Source: Sediminicola sp. YIK13 (GTDB lineage: Bacteria > Bacteroidota > Bacteroidia > Flavobacteriales > Flavobacteriaceae). From it: a stretch of 64,000 bases of DNA. Shown here in pieces: positions 20,067 to 42,537 of the stretch. A program made the translations under genes and the position numbers. Every line of letters begins with the position of its first letter. The first letter of the stretch is position 1. The notes beneath the pieces are model-generated. The model saw only the letters and a list, made by a program, of their open reading frames with translations, was not told where the DNA came from and did not search any database. The stretch spans positions 2,274,501 to 2,338,500 of the forward strand of contig NZ_CP010535.1 in the NCBI RefSeq assembly GCF_001430825.1. Direction: 5' to 3'.

Positions 20067-20140
20067 CACCCGCTTAGGACAGACCTAGCGAACAAAAGAA
20101 TTAATAATCAAGGGTCGGGCACCCTACAAATTAATGTGAT

Positions 20141-21353: not shown

Positions 21354-21941
21354 ATGATTCATCCTAAAACAGAACTCAGGTTCATCAATAATGAAATCGG
21401 TTATGGCGTAGTAGCCACTGAATTTATTCCAGCGGGCACCATTACTTGGGTTCTGGATAAATTGGATAGGGAATTCACCCAAGATCAGTTGACCGATATG
21501 GACCCCTTATATCAATCCATATTGGACACCTATACTTTTAGGGACAACCAAGGGAAATATATTTTGTGTTGGGACAATGCCCGTTATGTGAACCATAGTT
21601 TTAATTCCAATTGCCTTACCACCGCATATGATTTTGAGGTCGCTATAAGGGATATTCATGCAGGGGAACAGCTGACGGATGATTATGGGTATCTGAACAT
21701 TCCTGAACCATTTGAGGCAGCGGACGAGGGCACCGAAAGAAAGATAGTCTACCCAGACGATCTCTTGAGATACCATAAGACGTGGGACAAAAAACTAATT
21801 GAGGTCTTCCATAAGATCCCAATCATTGATCAACCTTTGCGACCCCTGATTACGCCCAAGCTATGGACGAAAGTAACAGCGATTGCCAATGGTAAAATTC
21901 AAATGGACTCCATTAAAAATAACTACTACAACGGGAAATGA
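21354..21941 (+). CDS. SET domain-containing protein
   Basis: A 195-residue protein with an almost free-standing SET domain, the fold of lysine methyltransferases. The substrate- and AdoMet-binding core is seen as ARYVNHSFNSNCLTT (the N-H-S-x-x-x-N-C motif) and GEQLTDDYGYL, where the Tyr of DDYG is the expected catalytic residue. The start FINNEIGYGVVATEFIPAG is the usual SET-N motif. The C-terminal about 70 residues have no zinc post-SET cysteines. It lies between rimM and trmN6, so ribosomal proteins or translation factors are possible substrates; this is inference from position only. Confidence 0.88.
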   Translation: MIHPKTELRFINNEIGYGVVATEFIPAGTITWVLDKLDREFTQDQLTDMDPLYQSILDTYTFRDNQGKYILCWDNARYVNHSFNSNCLTTAYDFEVAIRDIHAGEQLTDDYGYLNIPEPFEAADEGTERKIVYPDDLLRYHKTWDKKLIEVFHKIPIIDQPLRPLITPKLWTKVTAIANGKIQMDSIKNNYYNGK

Positions 21942-22895: not shown

Positions 22896-23774
22896 TTAAA
22901 AGCGTCTGCGGAGTGGTCTTGTCAAACAGGTAGGTCCGCCGCCCCCTTTAACACTTATTTCCTCCCCAACATACGTATTTACCTTACAACCAGCATTTAT
23001 TAGCAGGGCTTCGGTTTTTGCATTGCCAGCAACCATAACACAATTTCTTGGGCTAATGGCCAATACATTGCATCCCATAGAATCGAATTCCAATTCAGGG
23101 ACTTCCAACAATTCAAAACCACGATTGAGTAGTTCCTTTCTAAAATGAATAGGAAGCAAAGGAGAATAGACAACGGCCAAATCCTTATCAACGGGGCTAA
23201 AGATCGACATCAAATGAAAAACATCCGATGGCCCCTTATAATGAGGAAGCTCCACTACCAAAACCTTGATCGAAAAAGGGGATAGTAGTTTTTTTAACTG
23301 TTGGATGCCCTCTTCATTGGTACGGTAGGAGTGGCCCACTGCCAAGGTGGACTCATCTAGCCAAGCCACATCACCTCCCTCTAGAGTGCCAGGAGCTTCG
23401 ATTTTTCCTAAAATTTGGATATTATTTTTTTGGTAGGTCGCTTCTTGTACTTTGGGTTCGTAAATTCTTCTTTCCTTTCCCATTCGACAAAGGATCATCC
23501 CAAAATTAGTAACTATGGCCGCATCCCGAGTATAAATAGCATCCATGGAAACATCAGAATCTCCAGGCTGTAACAGTACGGTTGCACAAGTAGACTTTAT
23601 AAGGCCTTCAAAATTGGAAAACTCAACTTCTGCCTTTAGATAATCTGGTTTGGAGAGATAATTAAGTGATTTCCATTCCCTTTCCAGTTTATGCTCATCA
23701 ACAAATGCATTTGATATTGAATTGATCAACACCATATCAAGTTCATGATATTCCGAATGACACGTATATTCCAT
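22896..23774 (-). CDS. dimethylarginine dimethylaminohydrolase/arginine deiminase-family enzyme
   Basis: A 292-residue guanidino-modifying enzyme of the DDAH/amidinotransferase fold. The pieces of the active site are present: APGTLEGGDVAWLD (acidic residues), PSDVFHLMSIF (general-base His) and the terminal GGGGPTC283LTRPL (nucleophilic Cys). The size fits DDAH, which turns methylated arginines into citrulline and dimethyl- or methylamine, better than arginine deiminase (about 400 aa). It starts 10 bases after the AdiC-like permease stop, so transporter and hydrolase form an operon. The exact guanidino substrate is not decided by the sequence. Confidence 0.85.
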   Translation of the reverse strand: MEYTCHSEYHELDMVLINSISNAFVDEHKLEREWKSLNYLSKPDYLKAEVEFSNFEGLIKSTCATVLLQPGDSDVSMDAIYTRDAAIVTNFGMILCRMGKERRIYEPKVQEATYQKNNIQILGKIEAPGTLEGGDVAWLDESTLAVGHSYRTNEEGIQQLKKLLSPFSIKVLVVELPHYKGPSDVFHLMSIFSPVDKDLAVVYSPLLPIHFRKELLNRGFELLEVPELEFDSMGCNVLAISPRNCVMVAGNAKTEALLINAGCKVNTYVGEEISVKGGGGPTCLTRPLRRRF

Positions 23775-23784
23775 ACAACAGTTG

Positions 23785-25101
23785 TTAATCCTTATCCTTA
23801 TTCCTTGTTTTCATCAATACATAAAATGGAATTCCGGACATTAACAGTATAAAACCATAGAAAACAGCAGGCTCCCCTGCTCCAAATATGGCCCAGAGTG
23901 AAAACAGAAAGGCCATTCCCCCTAAAGAAACGACACTAACGGTATTCTTAAAAGCTAATTTTTCTTGCAAGACAAGAAGAACATAAGCTGCAGTAGAAAA
24001 TAAATAAGGAATTAAACAACATAAAGTAGCCAGTAAAACTATAAATTTAAATTGCTCTACTAGACCATCAGTAAAGTTTAAAAGCATGATGACAGAAGTT
24101 AAAAAACTTCCAATAACCATTCCCAATACCGGGGCTCCATGTTTATTTTCCCTTTTAAATATGCGTGGAAACAAGTCGTCCTTTGCAGTAGCCATGGCCA
24201 CTTGCCCTTGTACCAGTATCCATCCGTTTAAGGCCCCAAAAGCGGCAATTACGGCACCTGCACCCACCAAATCACGTCCCCAATCACCACTCATAATTTC
24301 CATGGCATCTGCAAAAGGAGCGGGTGACTCGGATAGGATATTGGCAGGGATCATTCCCATAACCACAACGGTCCCTAAAAGATATACCACTGTTGTAATA
24401 ATAGTACCTATCATTGTCGCCTTAGGAATAGTTTTTTCCGGATTCTTAACATTCCCAGAGGGTACCGTAGCACTTTCTATCCCTAAAAAGGCGTATAGGG
24501 TCATGGTCGCAGTAATGGCGATGGCACTAAAATTTGATTTACCACTGATATTGAAAGGATAAAAATTTTCAGGATTGAAAAAGAAAAACCCACCAAGGAT
24601 AACAATAAATAGAGGGGATAATTTTAAAATGGTCGTAATCAATTGCATTTTTCCAGAAGCCCTTACACCTCTCGAGTTTAATGCCGTAAGCCCCCAAATG
24701 GCACTTAAACCAACCAATACCGCTATTATTGGGCTTTGGTCCAAAATAGGAAAAAAAACGCTTAAAGCACTAACAAATGCTATAGCGATGGCCGCGTTAC
24801 TTGTCCATACCGATATCCAATAGCCCCAGGCCACTAAAAACCCAGCAAAATCACCAAAGGCAGCTTTAGTGAAAGCGTAGGGACCTCCACTTTTGTTGGC
24901 CACAAGAACACTCAGTTTACTAAATACGCTAGCAAGTAAAAGTGCTCCAAAAGCAGAAAAAAGCCATCCAATGGTACTGATACCACCAAAAGATGCCAAT
25001 GCTGCTGGCATAAGAAATACACCTGCACCAATCATATTTCCAATTACCAAGGAAGTACTCGTCCATAGTCCTATTTTTTTTACTTCAACAGGTTCGGCCA
25101 T
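23785..25101 (-). CDS. AdiC-like amino acid antiporter (APC superfamily)
   Basis: A 438-residue, 12-helix inner-membrane transporter. Compared with the E. coli arginine/agmatine antiporter AdiC as I know it, SLVIGNMIGAGVFLMP keeps the substrate-binding Asn of helix 1 (the following Ser is Ala), the helix-3 Asn is kept in YWISVWTSNAA, and the proximal gate Trp293 is kept in LNGWILVQGQ. The middle gate Trp202 is replaced by Tyr (TMTLYAFLGIES). Substrates are thus likely guanidino compounds such as arginine, methylarginine or agmatine. It is the first gene of an operon with the DDAH-like hydrolase and is divergent from a Rieske oxygenase. Confidence 0.88.
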   Translation of the reverse strand: MAEPVEVKKIGLWTSTSLVIGNMIGAGVFLMPAALASFGGISTIGWLFSAFGALLLASVFSKLSVLVANKSGGPYAFTKAAFGDFAGFLVAWGYWISVWTSNAAIAIAFVSALSVFFPILDQSPIIAVLVGLSAIWGLTALNSRGVRASGKMQLITTILKLSPLFIVILGGFFFFNPENFYPFNISGKSNFSAIAITATMTLYAFLGIESATVPSGNVKNPEKTIPKATMIGTIITTVVYLLGTVVVMGMIPANILSESPAPFADAMEIMSGDWGRDLVGAGAVIAAFGALNGWILVQGQVAMATAKDDLFPRIFKRENKHGAPVLGMVIGSFLTSVIMLLNFTDGLVEQFKFIVLLATLCCLIPYLFSTAAYVLLVLQEKLAFKNTVSVVSLGGMAFLFSLWAIFGAGEPAVFYGFILLMSGIPFYVLMKTRNKDKD

Positions 25102-25138
25102 AAAAATAGATTAGTGTAAGATCTCATTATAAATTAAT

Positions 25139-25146
25139 TAAATTTG
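25139..25146 (+). promoter_or_regulatory. -7 element of Rieske oxygenase promoter
   Basis: TAAATTTG, exact TAnnTTTG match, 32 bases upstream of the ATG, inside the 77-base divergent region shared with the permease. Confidence 0.6.
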
Positions 25147-25178
25147 GGAAGAAATCCTTTGCCAAGTTACAATATAAT

Positions 25179-26273
25179 ATGATTAAGAACTTTTATATAG
25201 ATTCGGATATCACAAAAGCATCTACTTTGCCCGCCTCATTTTACAGAGACCCCGAAGTTTTTGAGTCAATTAAGAACGATATTTTTTATAAATCTTGGCA
25301 GTGGGTAGGGCACGAAAATTTAGTGGAATTGCCTCATCAACAATATCCTTTTACCCTTTTGGATGGTTTTTTGACAGAACCTGTAGTCTTGACAAGGGAC
25401 GAGGGGAATCGCATTCATTGTCTATCCAACGTATGCACGCATAGGGGGAATTTAGTGGTGGCCCAAAATTCCAATACAAAAAAATTGATCTGTGGGTATC
25501 ACGGAAGAAAATTTCAATTGGACGGTACCATGGAACATATGCCCGAATTTAAAGAGGCCCAGGATTTTCCCAAACCGTGCGATAACCTTTATAAATTTCC
25601 ATTGCGCCATTGGGGTCCGTTTTTGTTTATGGGTCTTAGCCCAACCTTTGATATCAATCCCGTTCTGGAAATCATGAATGAGCGTATTGGCTTTTTGCCC
25701 TTACATGATTTTAAATTGGATGAAAGTCGTTCTACAGAATATATGGTCCATGCCCATTGGGCACTCTATTGCGATAATTATTTGGAAGGCTTTCACATTC
25801 CTTTTGTCCATAATGACCTAAACGAGGTATTGGATTATGGCAATTACGAGACCCTCCTTTTTGATCATATGAGCCTTCAGATCGGTTATGCCCAAGGATC
25901 GGAGGAAATTTTTGAATTCCCTGAAAATCATATCGACCATGAAAAAAAAATAGCGGCCTATTACTTCTGGGTATTCCCCAATATGATGTTCAATTTCTAT
26001 CCTTGGGGTCTCTCGGTAAACATTGTACGCCCATTGGACCTTAAGAGCACCAAAGTTTCTTTTTACTCTTATGTCCATGACGATAGTAAATTGGACAGAG
26101 GGGCAGGTTCTGGGTTGGACAAGGTAGAATTGGAAGATGAGGAGGTGGTAGAAAGCGTTCAGAAGGGAGTCCGCTCAAAGTTCTATAAAGCAGGACGTTT
26201 TTCCCCAACAAGGGAAAAAGGCGTACATCATTTTCACCGTCTTTTGGCTCGTTTTATAAATGGTCAAAAATAA
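25179..26273 (+). CDS. Rieske-type ring-hydroxylating/demethylating oxygenase, alpha subunit
   Basis: A 364-residue oxygenase. The Rieske 2Fe-2S site is CTHRG...CGYHGRKF (Cys-x-His about 88-90, Cys-x2-His about 107-110). The mononuclear iron site appears as NYLEGFHIPFVH in the SRPBCC catalytic domain. The organisation is that of alpha-only oxygenases such as choline, carnitine or glycine-betaine monooxygenases and N-demethylases, which need a separate reductase; none is adjacent. Its location, divergent from the guanidino permease/DDAH operon with only 77 bases between, suggests an N-methylated substrate. That is inference. Confidence 0.88.
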   Translation: MIKNFYIDSDITKASTLPASFYRDPEVFESIKNDIFYKSWQWVGHENLVELPHQQYPFTLLDGFLTEPVVLTRDEGNRIHCLSNVCTHRGNLVVAQNSNTKKLICGYHGRKFQLDGTMEHMPEFKEAQDFPKPCDNLYKFPLRHWGPFLFMGLSPTFDINPVLEIMNERIGFLPLHDFKLDESRSTEYMVHAHWALYCDNYLEGFHIPFVHNDLNEVLDYGNYETLLFDHMSLQIGYAQGSEEIFEFPENHIDHEKKIAAYYFWVFPNMMFNFYPWGLSVNIVRPLDLKSTKVSFYSYVHDDSKLDRGAGSGLDKVELEDEEVVESVQKGVRSKFYKAGRFSPTREKGVHHFHRLLARFINGQK

Positions 26274-26319: not shown

Positions 26320-26351
26320 TTGTTATGTTATATTCCTTTTAATTATCTTTG
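26320..26351 (+). promoter_or_regulatory. gcdH promoter
   Basis: TTG at 26320-26322, 21-base spacer, then TATCTTTG at 26344-26351. Because the -7 box covers the TTG at 26349, that codon cannot be the translation start, which favours ATG 26370. Confidence 0.7.
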
Positions 26352-38263: not shown

Positions 38264-41263
38264 TTATTTTACTGGCGTACCTAATTTCTTGGAGGTTTTC
38301 ATGTCCGCATAACGCGGGTCCTGGATGTAATCCTGTTTTTGCATTTTTAGGACCTCTATGCTCAAAAAGCCAAATTCGCTCACCACCTTTCCGTAAAACC
38401 TATAGATTCCCCTCCCCCGGAATGGGTACTGGGCAGCTATGGGCGGGAACAGCACCGTATCGAACACCTCTCCATATTGATCCACCAAGGTGGCAAAGTT
38501 CATACGGGTACCCTTGTGGGTCTTGGTATTTTTGACCGTTACCAAATAGCCGTAGATATCTATGTATTTATCCAGATAAGCCTCCAAGTCTCGCTTACCG
38601 TTGGTATTCTTGGGAGGTTCGGCCAAGATATCGAACGGACTGCAGAGGCTAAAACCCAAGAGCTCCAATTGGGTAAAGGCCATTTCCAGATCGGTGGTGT
38701 GTAGTTTGGGGATGGTAAAATGCTGCGGCTTGGCGGGAAACAGTTTGGGGTGTTCCAATTTCGTATTTTTAGAGAGGGACAAGTGGGCTTCCCACAAGAG
38801 TTCATGTTTGTTCACTCTGGTAAACCTAAAAGCATCTATCCGGATCAGGATGCTCAATTGCTCTATGGAAATAGGCACCCGGTCCACAAAATCGGCCAAG
38901 GACAAAAAGGGACCGTTCGCCTTTCGTTCCTTTAAAAGGCGTTCCATGACCCTGGCCTCCAATTCCCTGAGGTACATATACCCCAAATAGAGCTCTTTCC
39001 CATAAATACAATTTACGGCAACACTTTTGTTGATGCAGGGCGGGTGTATGGTGGCCCCCAGCATCTGGGCCTCGTGGATATAGAATTCGGGGCTGTAGAA
39101 CCCACCTCCATTGTTGAGTACGGCAACCATATATTCCAATGGAAAATAGGCCTTTAGAAAAAGCGTCTGATAGCTTTCCACGGCATAGGAAGCAGAATGT
39201 CCTTTGGCAAAGGCATACCCTGCAAAGCTGGCCACCTGGTCCCATATTTCAAAGATCAGGGCATCGGTATACCCCTTTTTTCGGCAATTGTCCACAAACT
39301 TGTCCTTTACCTTTTGGAACTCCTCCCGGGAGCGGAACTTCCCGCTCATGCCCCTCCTCAGTACGTCTGCCTCTCCCAAGTCCAAATCTGCAAAATAATG
39401 TGCCACTTTAATGACATCTTCTTGGTAGACCATAACGCCATAGGTCTCCGGCATGATCTGCAACATCACGGGGTGTGCCTTTTCCTGTGCCCTGCCCTTC
39501 TCCCGGTGCCTTAAGATATATTCGCGCATCATCCCGCTTTTGGATACTCCGGGCCGAATGATGGAACTTGCCGCGACGAGTCCCAAATAAGTGTCTACCT
39601 CCAACTTTTTCAATAGCATTCGCATGGCAGGGGACTCCACATAAAAACAGCCCATACATTGGGCACTTTTCACCAAAGCGTTCACTACAGGGTCTGTCTT
39701 GAACCGTTTGATATCATGGATATCGAACGTCTCTATCTGTTCGGGTTGGTTGTAGGCCAAAATTTCCATGGTCTCCTTCATTTTTGCCAAGCCTCGCTGT
39801 GAAAGGATATCGAATTTAAAAAGTCCCACATCCTCGGCAATTACCATATCGAACTGGGTGGTAGGATATCCCTTGGGTGGGAGATGGGTAGCGGAAAAAT
39901 AATGGATGGGCCTTTCCGTGATCAAAATCCCCCCGGCATGGATACTCAGGTAATTGGGCATGCCCTTGATCAGCTCCCCATATTTCAGGACCAAAAGGGA
40001 CATCTCGTCCAATTGTGATGGATTGTATTTCCCGTCACAGAGCACGTCTATCTCTTCTTTGGGAAGGCCGAACACCTTTCCCAATTCCCGGATCACCCCC
40101 TTGACCTGAAAGGTGACATAGGTTCCCAAAAGGGAAACATGGGGAAAACGCCCAAAAATATATTGGGTCATGGCTTCCCGGTCCTTCCAAGAGAAGTCTA
40201 TATCAAAATCGGGCGGATTTACCCGGTACAGGTTGATGAAGCGCTCAAAATAAAGGTCGAGTTCAATGGGATCCACATCGGTGATCCTAAGCAGGTAGGC
40301 CACAATACTATTGGCGCCACTGCCCCGCCCCACATAAAAGAACCCTTGTTTACGTGCATGGGAAACAATATCCCAATTGATGAGAAAGTAGGACACAAAC
40401 CCCATTTTCTTGATCAGGCCCAGTTCTTTCTGCAAGCGCCCCAAGACCACCTCATTGGCTTCTGCATACCTATAGGGCAGGCCTTCCCTGCACAATTGTT
40501 CCAACAGGGCCTCATCGGCATCTGTATCCCCCAAATAGGTTTCCAGATTCTGTGGCTTTCGCCCCTCTGAAAAATCGAAATGGATACTACAGGAACGCAG
40601 TAGCCGTTCCGTGTTTTCTAAAATAAAACTGTATTCGGAAAAAGCCGCTGCCAAATTTTGTACCGGGAACATCTTTTCCTCTGGTCTGGCCTCCTCGGTC
40701 TGTGGCAGTTTGCTCAGCAGTACATTATTATCAATGGCGCGTAACAATCGGTGGGCATTGAAATCGCGTTTGTTCCGAAACGTAACCGGCTGCTGTACCA
40801 CCAACCTATCCTTTAACTCTATGATTTTAGAAAAGGGCAATCGCCTTAGATCTGCGATAGAAATACCTATGAACTCATGTTCCAAAAAAGTCTTTTGTTC
40901 GTGTAGCAACACTTTTTCGAACGGGTAGACCAAATAGGCATTTTTAAAGGAAGGAGCCCTTGGCGCAAACTTTTTTTCCTGATGGAGGTGGTCGGACAAA
41001 AAGGTGTTCAATTCCTGATATCCTTCATTATTTTTGGCGATACCCACAAAACACTGGTCCACCCCATTTCTAAAATCGATCCCCAAAATGGGCCGCACCC
41101 CATAATCTGGTGCCTTCCGCACAAAATTAAGGCAGGCCGAGGTATTGTTGATATCTGTGAGCACCAACTGTCCCACATGGTTCTCTTGCGCCAATTGCAA
41201 GAGCTCCAGCTCGGAAAGGGTTCCGAAACGCATGCTGTAGTAGGTGTGGCAGTTGATGTACAT
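38264..41263 (-). CDS. dnaE2: error-prone-type DNA polymerase III alpha (DnaE2-like)
   Basis: A second C-family polymerase of 999 residues, without the DnaQ domain of the dnaE at 14861. The palm has the catalytic PPDFDIDFSW. The N-terminal PHP domain is degenerate: the usual H-x-H is NCH (YINCHTYYS) and LTDH is LTDIN. An OB domain ends the protein (DIYGYLVTVKNTKTHKG). It starts 59 bases after dinB on the same strand, forming a damage-tolerance pair. The DNA is clearly GC-richer than its neighbours (52-58% in rows I counted against about 37-42% elsewhere), which suggests acquisition. Homologues work in induced mutagenesis; the assignment as DnaE2 is from context and length. Confidence 0.88.
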   Translation of the reverse strand: MYINCHTYYSMRFGTLSELELLQLAQENHVGQLVLTDINNTSACLNFVRKAPDYGVRPILGIDFRNGVDQCFVGIAKNNEGYQELNTFLSDHLHQEKKFAPRAPSFKNAYLVYPFEKVLLHEQKTFLEHEFIGISIADLRRLPFSKIIELKDRLVVQQPVTFRNKRDFNAHRLLRAIDNNVLLSKLPQTEEARPEEKMFPVQNLAAAFSEYSFILENTERLLRSCSIHFDFSEGRKPQNLETYLGDTDADEALLEQLCREGLPYRYAEANEVVLGRLQKELGLIKKMGFVSYFLINWDIVSHARKQGFFYVGRGSGANSIVAYLLRITDVDPIELDLYFERFINLYRVNPPDFDIDFSWKDREAMTQYIFGRFPHVSLLGTYVTFQVKGVIRELGKVFGLPKEEIDVLCDGKYNPSQLDEMSLLVLKYGELIKGMPNYLSIHAGGILITERPIHYFSATHLPPKGYPTTQFDMVIAEDVGLFKFDILSQRGLAKMKETMEILAYNQPEQIETFDIHDIKRFKTDPVVNALVKSAQCMGCFYVESPAMRMLLKKLEVDTYLGLVAASSIIRPGVSKSGMMREYILRHREKGRAQEKAHPVMLQIMPETYGVMVYQEDVIKVAHYFADLDLGEADVLRRGMSGKFRSREEFQKVKDKFVDNCRKKGYTDALIFEIWDQVASFAGYAFAKGHSASYAVESYQTLFLKAYFPLEYMVAVLNNGGGFYSPEFYIHEAQMLGATIHPPCINKSVAVNCIYGKELYLGYMYLRELEARVMERLLKERKANGPFLSLADFVDRVPISIEQLSILIRIDAFRFTRVNKHELLWEAHLSLSKNTKLEHPKLFPAKPQHFTIPKLHTTDLEMAFTQLELLGFSLCSPFDILAEPPKNTNGKRDLEAYLDKYIDIYGYLVTVKNTKTHKGTRMNFATLVDQYGEVFDTVLFPPIAAQYPFRGRGIYRFYGKVVSEFGFLSIEVLKMQKQDYIQDPRYADMKTSKKLGTPVK

Positions 41264-41322
41264 TGTGTTTGTTTTTCAATCAAAGAATTTCAATATTTGA
41301 GGCTAACGGTACGGAAGTCTTC

Positions 41323-42537
41323 CTACTGCTTTCGATGTGCCAGGATGATGGGCGGCTGTCCGTTAAATGGATTCTGCATCCTCCCAATGGTCTTTGCCCC
41401 CAATCCAGAGGCCCTAAGCACACTTTTGTCTCCAAAACGCTCCCTGATCTTATCCAAAGCGGCATATAGGTTCAGTGCCTCCTCGGTATCGTCGAACAAA
41501 TTGATCTGATAATTCCCCTGTACCAAATGGCTGAACCTGATCCCGATGAGCCGCACCAATAATCTTTTGTTATAAAGGGTGTTGAATAGTTCCAAAATTT
41601 TGGGAATCAGGATATGGTCTGCACTGGTAAAGGGGATTTTCAATTGCTTGGAATAGGTGTTAAAATCGGAGTAGCGAATCTTGACCGCAATGCAGGCCGT
41701 TAATTTATCACCCCTCCGCAGTTGGAAGGCGAGGTTCTCGGTCATGGCGACAAGGATTCCCCGAAGTTTAATGACATCTATGGTATCCTTGTCAAAAGTA
41801 CGTTCGGTGGAAATGGATTTGCGTTCCGAAAAAGGGATAACAGGGGTATTGTCTATCCCGTTGGCCCGTTTCCAAATAACGCCCCCATTGGCACCCAATA
41901 CCCGTTGCATCATATCCATGGGCATTTCCTGGATGGTCTTTACCTGCCGCAATCCCAAGTTCCGGAGTACCTGATAGGTCTTATCACCCACCATGGGTAT
42001 TTTTTTAATGGACAAAGGGGCCAGAAAAGGCTTCTCATAACCCAGATCTATCTTTAATTGATTATTGGGTTTTGCCTCATTGGTAGCCACTTTGGAAACC
42101 ACCTTATTGCCCGATAATCCGAAAGAAATGGGGAGACCAGTTTCTTTGATAATCCTATTTCGAAGTTCGGAGGCATAATGATAGCAACCAAAAAAACGAT
42201 CCATCCCGGTAAGGTCTGCATAAAACTCATCGATACTCGATTTTTCAAAAAGGGGCACCTGCTCTTTAATGATATCGGTAACCATATCCGAGTGCTTGCT
42301 ATAGGTCCCTGCATTGCCCTTGATGACCACTGCTTCCGGGCACAACTGCTTGGCCATTTTCATGGGCATTCCGGAGTGTACCCCAAACCCTCTGGTCTCA
42401 TAACTGCACGCGGCCACGACCCCCCTGTCACTGGTGCCTCCCACCAATAAGGGACGGTGCTTTAACCTACTGTCCTGCAGTCGTTCTACGGACACAAAAA
42501 ACGTGTCTAAATCTAAATGAAGTATCGTCTTATCCAT
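41323..42537 (-). CDS. dinB: Y-family DNA polymerase (DinB/Pol IV type)
   Basis: A 404-residue translesion polymerase. Catalytic carboxylates are present in LHLDLDTFFVSVE and SSIDEFYADL; the fingers have SYETRGFGVHSGMP, and the little finger follows. QINLF near residue 343 fits the QxxLF sliding-clamp-binding motif. All this marks it as an active polymerase, unlike the inactive ImuB of other cassettes. It is the first gene of the pair with dnaE2. Its GC content is also raised. Upstream are an inverted repeat two bases before the ATG and two copies of a TGGAATATTTCCA element, likely the damage-control region. Confidence 0.94.
   Translation of the reverse strand: MDKTILHLDLDTFFVSVERLQDSRLKHRPLLVGGTSDRGVVAACSYETRGFGVHSGMPMKMAKQLCPEAVVIKGNAGTYSKHSDMVTDIIKEQVPLFEKSSIDEFYADLTGMDRFFGCYHYASELRNRIIKETGLPISFGLSGNKVVSKVATNEAKPNNQLKIDLGYEKPFLAPLSIKKIPMVGDKTYQVLRNLGLRQVKTIQEMPMDMMQRVLGANGGVIWKRANGIDNTPVIPFSERKSISTERTFDKDTIDVIKLRGILVAMTENLAFQLRRGDKLTACIAVKIRYSDFNTYSKQLKIPFTSADHILIPKILELFNTLYNKRLLVRLIGIRFSHLVQGNYQINLFDDTEEALNLYAALDKIRERFGDKSVLRASGLGAKTIGRMQNPFNGQPPIILAHRKQ

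What the first reader, a model, noticed from the sequence alone, without database searches (positions are those of the whole stretch)
22896..26273. AdiC-like permease and DDAH-like hydrolase operon, divergent from a Rieske oxygenase
Seen: permease and hydrolase 10 bases apart; the permease keeps the two substrate Asn and the Trp293 equivalent of AdiC, with Trp202 changed to Tyr; the hydrolase has the Cys-His-acid set of DDAH; an alpha-only Rieske oxygenase starts 77 bases away in the other direction. Inference: uptake and breakdown of methylated arginine or another methylated guanidine, with possible oxidative N-demethylation. I know of no described pathway with this set.
Basis: partly seen in the sequence, partly recalled or inferred. 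Interest (0 to 1): 0.62.

Follow-up and report, generated by a model that had tools for sequence, protein, structure and literature searches.

The report
Putative methylated-arginine salvage gene cassette
A bacterium carries a three-gene set, an uptake pump for arginine-like molecules, an enzyme that appears to cut modified arginine side chains, and an iron oxygenase, that related bacteria tend to keep or lose together, which points to an undescribed route for using methylated amino acids.

Summary
The association is real. In 149 family genomes 15 of 16 hydrolase carriers and 22 of 23 permease carriers also have the Rieske. In 395 phylum genomes all 7 strong hydrolase carriers have the Rieske, two of them on other contigs. 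Of 29 genomes whose hydrolase locus lacks a Rieske, 18 carry one elsewhere. Seven of 10 chosen relatives without the genes show the empty site: a cassette. The acyl-CoA dehydrogenase and ferredoxin/reductase genes are ancestral neighbours. The hydrolase keeps the DDAH/ADI catalytic set and alpha-amino-acid ligands. The Asp of arginine deiminases (HxD; Lys in DDAH) is Met in every orthologue checked, including 23 of 23 found without using that motif. This argues against plain arginine deimination and for an N-substituted guanidine. The Rieske has the aromatic residue and bridging Glu of cation-oxidising group Va (100 of 100). No tested reductase co-varies. Best reading: uptake plus parallel hydrolytic and oxidative breakdown of methylated arginine-type amino acids. 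The gene link is strong; the substrate is inferred.

The parts
22896..23774 (-). DDAH/ADI-superfamily (pentein) hydrolase, 292 aa; Cys283-His187-Glu132, Asp84, Asp78, Arg103, Arg151; HxM motif (Met189)
23785..25101 (-). AdiC-like APC permease, 438 aa; same strand as and 10 bases before the hydrolase (the genes overlap in many relatives)
25179..26273 (+). Rieske non-haem iron oxygenase alpha subunit, 364 aa; C86/H88/C105/H108 cluster ligands, H206/H211/D320 iron ligands, bridging E203, aromatic Y201
25102..25178 (.). 77-base divergent intergenic region; one TAnnTTTG-like element at 25139 (+), weak: this 8-mer occurs 83 times on the two strands of the window (motif recalled)

Best explanation
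A small salvage cassette for methylated basic amino acids. The AdiC-like permease brings in a cationic alpha-amino acid, most likely a methylated arginine released by protein turnover. The hydrolase attacks its substituted guanidine carbon with Cys283 and releases an amine plus citrulline; the citrulline can go to ornithine through the genome's own CtlX. The Rieske oxygenase oxidises the same imported class of molecule at or next to the cationic nitrogen, by N-demethylation or C-N cleavage. It would open substrates that a DDAH-type enzyme does not cleave, for example symmetric dimethylarginine. Its electrons would come from a shared housekeeping reductase. Shown here: gene linkage, co-occurrence also without linkage, empty sites, catalytic and amino-acid-binding residues, the HxM change, and the Rieske cation signature. 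Inferred: the substrate, the direction of transport, the oxygenase product, and parallel rather than sequential action.
For: Co-occurrence in 149 family genomes: Rieske/permease 22 both, 7 Rieske only, 1 permease only; Rieske/hydrolase 15 both, 14 Rieske only, 1 hydrolase only (Fisher values there ignore kinship). Phylum, 395 genomes: 7 of 7 strong hydrolase carriers have a strong Rieske, which 34 of 395 have; in G270 and G289 the two genes are on different contigs. 18 of 29 genomes with a hydrolase locus lacking a Rieske carry it elsewhere. Permease immediately upstream of the hydrolase, same strand, in 71 of 80 loci. Empty site in 7 of 10 chosen non-carriers. Hydrolase D78, D84, R103, E132, R151, H187, C283 and M189 in 74 of 74 (but one of the two search patterns behind this set held the HLM motif). 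M189 is also 14 of 14 in orthologues found by whole-protein search and in 11 of 11 loci found by the profile (9 of these new). Model pLDDT 94.9; Z 33.5 to ADI, 30.7 to DDAH. HxD versus HxK logic from PMC11659421 passages. Rieske Va signature 100 of 100 (PMC7948474 passages). The permease pocket is alike whether the partner is Rieske, hydrolase or both, and partners swap on the permease tree (14 label changes, quick tree). CtlX in the genome, 463.1 bits against cut-off 334.
Against: No substrate is shown by any computation. DDAH's Lys and Glu65 are replaced (Met189; Arg83, or His in 5 of the 6 weakest orthologues), so this is not DDAH itself. Clade Vb, not Va, holds the demethylases named in PMC7948474. 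14 of 29 Rieske family genomes lack the hydrolase. 18 of 30 wider-phylum Rieske loci have no adjacent APC permease and 1 more is cut by a contig end. No co-varying reductase: PaaE-like in 138 of 149, FNR-like in 131 of 149. 9 of 29 hydrolase genomes gave no Rieske match and 2 only a weak one. Some Rieske relatives sit next to other transporters (GadC-like, LAT-like), so its substrate may differ there.
Confidence: 0.42

Rival explanations
1. Split-substrate salvage: the permease imports several methylated basic amino acids; the hydrolase takes methylarginine, while the Rieske takes N-epsilon-trimethyllysine. It would hydroxylate the carbon next to the quaternary nitrogen and release trimethylamine and an amino-aldehyde, as CntA does with carnitine.
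For: Rieske best PDB relative is CntA; the CntA Tyr203 cation-pi residue is Tyr/Phe and the bridging residue Glu in 100 of 100 orthologues, with Tyr225 and Asn270 also kept (PMC7948474 passages). The Rieske often occurs without the hydrolase (14 of 29). A glutaryl-CoA dehydrogenase-like gene of the kind used in lysine breakdown lies next door.
Against: The dehydrogenase is in 133 of 149 family genomes and is an ancestral neighbour at the empty site, so it says little. The CntA pocket is otherwise remodelled (Phe258->Ala, Phe319->Val, no Cys pair). In the family sample the hydrolase is nearly always accompanied by the Rieske (15 of 16), which suggests closer coupling.
Confidence: 0.22
2. Plain arginine catabolism: arginine uptake by the AdiC-like permease and deimination of unmodified arginine by the hydrolase; the Rieske oxidises arginine or a product.
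For: AdiC is an arginine/agmatine antiporter by annotation; fold closest to arginine deiminase (Z 33.5); all alpha-amino-acid ligands kept.
Against: The second guanidine-binding Asp of arginine deiminases (HxD) is Met in 14 of 14, 74 of 74 and 11 of 11. The genome already has a separate HLD paralogue beside CtlX. Far below the ADI family cut-offs (73.1 of 489.1 and 83 of 414 bits).
Confidence: 0.15
3. Polyamine or agmatine chemistry: the permease moves agmatine or a polyamine and the Rieske hydroxylates it, as the Rieske putrescine 2-hydroxylase does (recalled, Li et al. 2016, not seen here).
For: In one genome (L109) the Rieske follows arginine decarboxylase-like, agmatinase and deoxyhypusine/homospermidine synthase-like genes. 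The permease is in the basic amino acid/polyamine antiporter family (362.8 bits, below its cut-off of 409.05).
Against: One locus of the 29 family Rieske loci only; the hydrolase keeps the two carboxylate Arg and the amine Asp that agmatine would not need.
Confidence: 0.1
4. No common pathway: the Rieske is an unrelated neighbour that shares the site.
For: The Rieske is found without the others in several lineages.
Against: Co-occurrence holds when the genes are unlinked, and Rieske plus APC permease recurs in many different surroundings.
Confidence: 0.08

Closest known systems
Dimethylarginine dimethylaminohydrolase (DDAH, P. aeruginosa 1h70/3rhy)
   Same: Pentein fold (Z 30.7, rmsd 2.1 over 254 residues), Cys-His-Glu triad, guanidine Asp, two carboxylate Arg, amine Asp
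   Different: 25-26% identity; HxK is HxM, Glu65 is Arg (or His), Phe63 is Tyr; far below the dimethylargininase model cut-offs
Arginine deiminase (2a9g, 4bof)
   Same: Fold (Z 33.5, rmsd 2.4 over 285 residues), FTRD-like YTRD/YCRD motif
   Different: Second guanidine Asp (HxD) replaced by Met; shorter (292 residues against 399-412 in the ADI chains listed)
CtlX citrulline hydrolase (NF046062)
   Same: Same superfamily; one is present elsewhere in this genome
   Different: CtlX has FPNN and HTN (PMC9007349 passages); here RD and HLM
AdiC arginine/agmatine antiporter
   Same: 278.7 bits over residues 4-431; N22, N101, E208, W293 kept
   Different: W202 is Tyr/Phe, S26 is Ala in 54 of 87, S203 is Ala in 84 of 87; below the AdiC equivalog cut-off (355.4 of 574 bits)
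Carnitine monooxygenase CntA (group Va Rieske)
   Same: Alpha-only architecture, metal ligands, bridging Glu, Tyr203, Tyr225, Asn270
   Different: Low identity (28.8% to a plasmid-borne YeaW annotated as carnitine monooxygenase); no Cys pair, remodelled pocket, no reductase gene beside it

Membership tests
DDAH (dimethylargininase) | Cys-His-Glu catalytic set and guanidine Asp | tested here: met
   C283, H187, E132, D84 in 74 of 74 and 11 of 11
DDAH (dimethylargininase) | Alpha-amino-acid ligands (two Arg, one Asp) | tested here: met
   R103, R151, D78 in 74 of 74 and 11 of 11, mapped by the alignment; roles from PMC11659421 passages, residue numbers recalled
DDAH (dimethylargininase) | HxK lysine that makes room for the dimethylamino group | tested here: not met
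   Met189: 14 of 14, 74 of 74, 11 of 11
DDAH (dimethylargininase) | NCBIfam equivalog cut-off | tested here: not met
   75.9 of 340 and 65.7 of 450 bits
Arginine deiminase | Second guanidine Asp (HxD) | tested here: not met
   Met189
Arginine deiminase | Arginine hydrolysis to citrulline | not testable with these tools
   needs an assay
AdiC | Substrate residues N22, N101, E208, W293 | tested here: met
   N22 82, N101 80, E208 87, W293 83 of 87 permeases; all four in the window protein; W202 changed to Tyr/Phe
AdiC | NCBIfam equivalog cut-off | tested here: not met
   355.4 of 574 bits
Rieske oxygenase group Va (quaternary-ammonium) | 2Fe-2S and mononuclear iron ligands, bridging Glu | tested here: met
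   100 of 100 orthologues
Rieske oxygenase group Va (quaternary-ammonium) | Aromatic residue at CntA position 203 | tested here: met
   Tyr 97, Phe 3 of 100
Rieske oxygenase group Va (quaternary-ammonium) | Phylogenetic place within group V | not tested
   no tree with reference members was built
Rieske oxygenase group Va (quaternary-ammonium) | Oxidation of a quaternary ammonium substrate | not testable with these tools
   needs an assay

The most novel reading that the evidence does not exclude
A new catabolic pathway of Bacteroidota for protein-derived methylated arginine (and perhaps lysine): one transporter, a new HxM class of guanidine hydrolase, and the first Rieske enzyme that oxidatively removes methyl groups from, or cleaves, free methylated basic amino acids, run by a shared housekeeping reductase.
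Probability: 0.3. Interest if true: 0.75.

Novelty: new variant of a known kind. Interest (0 to 1): 0.52.

Why it matters
Methylated arginines and lysines are released when methylated proteins are broken down. If true, this gives Bacteroidota, many of them Flavobacteriaceae among the named loci, a dedicated route for such nitrogen. It adds a hydrolase class with an altered guanidine pocket, and puts a substrate guess on a large Rieske clade that reached no specific model cut-off in the NCBIfam search made here. It also makes a clean test possible: three genes, cultured carriers, cheap assays.

Tried and rejected
Glutaryl-CoA dehydrogenase-like gene as a fourth member: rejected; it is in 133 of 149 family genomes and lies at the empty site. 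Ferredoxin/TrxR-like FNR beside the block in relatives: not co-varying (131 of 149; no match in 6 of 29 Rieske carriers, among them the complete genomes G025 and G032). PaaE-like reductase (C1:2649552-2650598): in 138 of 149, so a possible donor but no evidence of pairing. The divergent promoter element is a single 8-mer, not significant. Riboswitch: no Rfam match at gathering score inside the cassette. Plasmid relatives: the closest annotated hydrolase relative (Rhizobium sp. AB2/73, 40.6%, also HLM) sits by an amino-acid-type ABC transporter and an aminotransferase, suggestive of amino-acid catabolism only; Shinella sp. PSBB067 (41.8%, HLM) has no annotation there; the more distant Kozakia and Shinella sumterensis proteins are HxD type. 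The Rieske structure model was weak (pLDDT 74.2) and was not used. The careful permease tree did not finish; the quick tree was used. Geometry of the predicted pocket could not be measured, as no model coordinates were in the Python box. Five paper searches for Rieske with putrescine, dimethylarginine, DDAH plus Bacteroidetes, trimethyllysine or agmatine (15 of 21, 15 of 23, 0, 8 of 13 and 8 of 8 papers listed) showed no paper that, by title or start of abstract, describes this set; two on bacterial methylarginine catabolism (3 and 1 listed) neither. The library holds open-licence papers only.
Full report
Observation. The window is part of a 3.57-Mb single-contig genome. Its family is Flavobacteriaceae by inference: a same-family handle, G037, has a contig of the same length (39,206) and with the same cassette proteins as a named Maribacter record, L176.

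Family assignments. The hydrolase matches Pfam ADI (6.6e-24) and DDAH_eukar (2.4e-14), and PaDDAH best in the PDB (1.4e-15). It stays far below every NCBIfam cut-off listed. The permease matches AdiC over nearly its whole length (8.2e-82), below the AdiC equivalog cut-off (355.4 of 574). The Rieske matches CntA best (6.8e-29; profile 9.5e-37) and reaches 90.3 of 670 bits for the glycine betaine monooxygenase model.

Do the genes belong together? In 149 family genomes I found the Rieske orthologue in 29, the permease in 23 (E up to 1e-60) and the hydrolase in 16. One weak Rieske match (29% identity, G081) and the distant hydrolase paralogues (24-30% identity) were dropped before counting; two hydrolases (G146, G065) are contig-end fragments and were kept. 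Pairs: Rieske with permease 22, Rieske only 7, permease only 1; Rieske with hydrolase 15, Rieske only 14, hydrolase only 1; permease with hydrolase 14, permease only 9, hydrolase only 2. Fisher values there (3.0e-19, 7.7e-12, 5.3e-12) ignore kinship. In 395 phylum genomes 13 carry the hydrolase at 1e-60. Seven score 499 bits or more, and all seven also have a strong Rieske (440 bits or more, 34 of 395). In G270 and G289 the two genes are on different contigs. Of the six weaker hydrolases, five genomes have the weaker, sister Rieske and one (G498) none at 1e-40.

Named loci. A scan of genome contigs found 384 hydrolase relatives and returned the best 80. The AdiC-like permease is in 75 of 80 loci, immediately upstream on the same strand in 71, with gaps of -112 to +92 (start codons were called automatically, so large overlaps may be wrong starts). 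The Rieske is in 43 of 80. Thirty-seven loci lack it; I searched the whole genomes of 29 of these (the other 8 loci are short or end near the genes). A strong Rieske (361 bits or more) lies elsewhere in 18, a weak one in 2, none in 9.

Site and cassette. I fetched 10 of the 119 family genomes with none of the three genes, chosen because the dehydrogenase and the FNR-like gene lie close together there. In 7 of 10 the glutaryl-CoA dehydrogenase-like gene abuts trmN; one other ORF intervenes in the other 3. In carriers at this site the Rieske, permease and hydrolase sit between these two genes. The block also occurs next to an rnpA-like gene, and between dnaE and a Mur-ligase-like gene (names by reading). 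Partial forms exist: permease and Rieske without hydrolase (L087, L090, L093, L235), permease and hydrolase without Rieske (L111, L112, L113), Rieske and hydrolase without permease (L091). The dehydrogenase (441.9 bits to a solved glutaryl-CoA dehydrogenase; 133 of 149 genomes) and the ferredoxin/FNR genes are ancestral neighbours. The dehydrogenase has its own promoter-like site at 26320 (motif recalled).

Partner swapping. A quick permease tree of 87 rows (7 contig-edge rows and 4 duplicate records left out) needs at least 14 changes of the label Rieske+hydrolase, Rieske only or hydrolase only (least possible 2; shuffled mean 31.4). Pocket residues are alike in the three groups: E208 87 of 87, W293 83, N22 82, N101 80. 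One permease type thus serves either enzyme, which suggests one substrate class. Rieske orthologues are often next to APC permeases: 21 of 29 family loci (19 AdiC-like, 2 GadC-like; 7 not, 1 contig end) and 11 of 30 wider loci (8 AdiC-like, 3 others; 18 not, 1 contig end). Of the 3 others, L245 and L250 match the L-type transporter model best; L249 was not scanned and resembles them.

Hydrolase mechanism. The AlphaFold model (pLDDT 94.9) matches arginine deiminase (Z 33.5) and DDAH (Z 30.7, rmsd 2.1). Mapping through the alignment gives PaDDAH D60=D78, D66=D84, R85=R103, E114=E132, R132=R151, H162=H187, C249=C283 (PaDDAH numbers recalled). All are 74 of 74. PMC11659421 (passages) says that arginine deiminases hold the guanidino group with the Asp of HxD, that DDAHs have Lys there, which lets the dimethylamino group fit, and names the Arg and Asp ligands of the amino-acid end. 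PMC9007349 (passages) describes the two Asp (FTRD, HLD) and their Asn replacements in CtlX. Here the first Asp is kept and the second is Met.

How far the Met is a fair count. The 74-row set is biased: one of the two search patterns that fetched it contained HLM (62 of 74 rows hold it; the other 12 hold only the other pattern, and those too have HLM). Sets found without that motif agree: 14 of 14 by whole-protein search and 11 of 11 by profile, of which 9 are new and 6 are the weakest members; so 23 of 23 different sequences. Alphaproteobacterial relatives at about 41% identity also have HLM. The simplest reading is an L-arginine-like substrate with a substituted, less polar guanidine end. That is an inference from residues, not a measurement.

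Rieske mechanism. All 100 orthologues compared (45% identity or more, 340 aa or more, a few records repeated) have the cluster and iron ligands, the bridging Glu and Tyr (97) or Phe (3) at the CntA Tyr203 position, plus Tyr225, Phe247 and Asn270 equivalents; Cys206/Cys209, Phe258 and Phe319 are not kept (CntA positions mapped by hand from the alignment). PMC7948474 (passages) uses the 203 residue to split group V: Va (aromatic; carnitine, choline, benzalkonium) and Vb (Asn; glycine betaine and stachydrine demethylation). PMC10952381 (passages) says the Cys pair is unique to some group V members. So a cationic substrate is likely; N-demethylation is possible but not favoured by the clade signature.

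Electron supply. The own genome has three NAD_binding_1 matches. One protein is PaaE-like with a C-terminal ferredoxin domain (344.6 bits, cut-off 420.8); I saw no other paa genes around it by reading the translations. It is in 138 of 149 genomes; the three Rieske carriers without a match (G094, G135, G146) are 73-84% complete. Neither it nor the FNR-like protein co-varies with the Rieske. A shared reductase is the likely donor.

Conclusion. The linkage is firm. The substrate reading, methylated arginine-type amino acids with a hydrolytic and an oxidative branch, is the best fit and is untested. That DDAH cannot use SDMA is recalled; PMC6273216 (passages) names ADMA and MMA as DDAH-1 substrates. 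PMC10256801 (passages) was looked at for DDAH residues and added only the DDAH1 catalytic triad.

Noticed in passing
window 21354-21941 (+): A 195-aa SET-domain protein (Pfam SET 2e-12), a protein-methyltransferase-type domain, lies between rimM and trmN; similar proteins (cluster d39) lie near the cassette in L152 and L176.
   Followed up: no
window 20100-20135 (+): S16-Flavobacteria ribosomal protein leader upstream of rpsP (Rfam RF03138, 49 bits).
   Followed up: no
own genome C1:1941369-1943576 (L280:5370-7577): Two more superfamily members: CtlX (463.1 bits, cut-off 334) and a 304-aa HLD-type paralogue, beside a citrate synthase-like gene by reading; likely an arginine/citrulline branch.
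   Followed up: partly
L110:7531-8523 (-), genome G138: Here the AdiC-like permease (47% identity) is divergent from a different Rieske-type protein (330 aa, CIHRG and CPYHAW motifs, read by eye), while the Rieske orthologue lies on another contig.
   Followed up: no
L109:8968-13448 (-), genome G138: Rieske orthologue directly after arginine decarboxylase-like, agmatinase and deoxyhypusine/homospermidine synthase-like genes.
   Followed up: partly
L256:7976-11433 and L257:6127-9412: The sister Rieske (37% identity) follows a pyridoxal-dependent decarboxylase and a short-chain dehydrogenase (the L257 proteins by Pfam).
   Followed up: no
window 38264-42537 (-): A second DnaE-type polymerase (999 aa) next to a DinB-like polymerase (404 aa), by reading the translations.
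   Followed up: no
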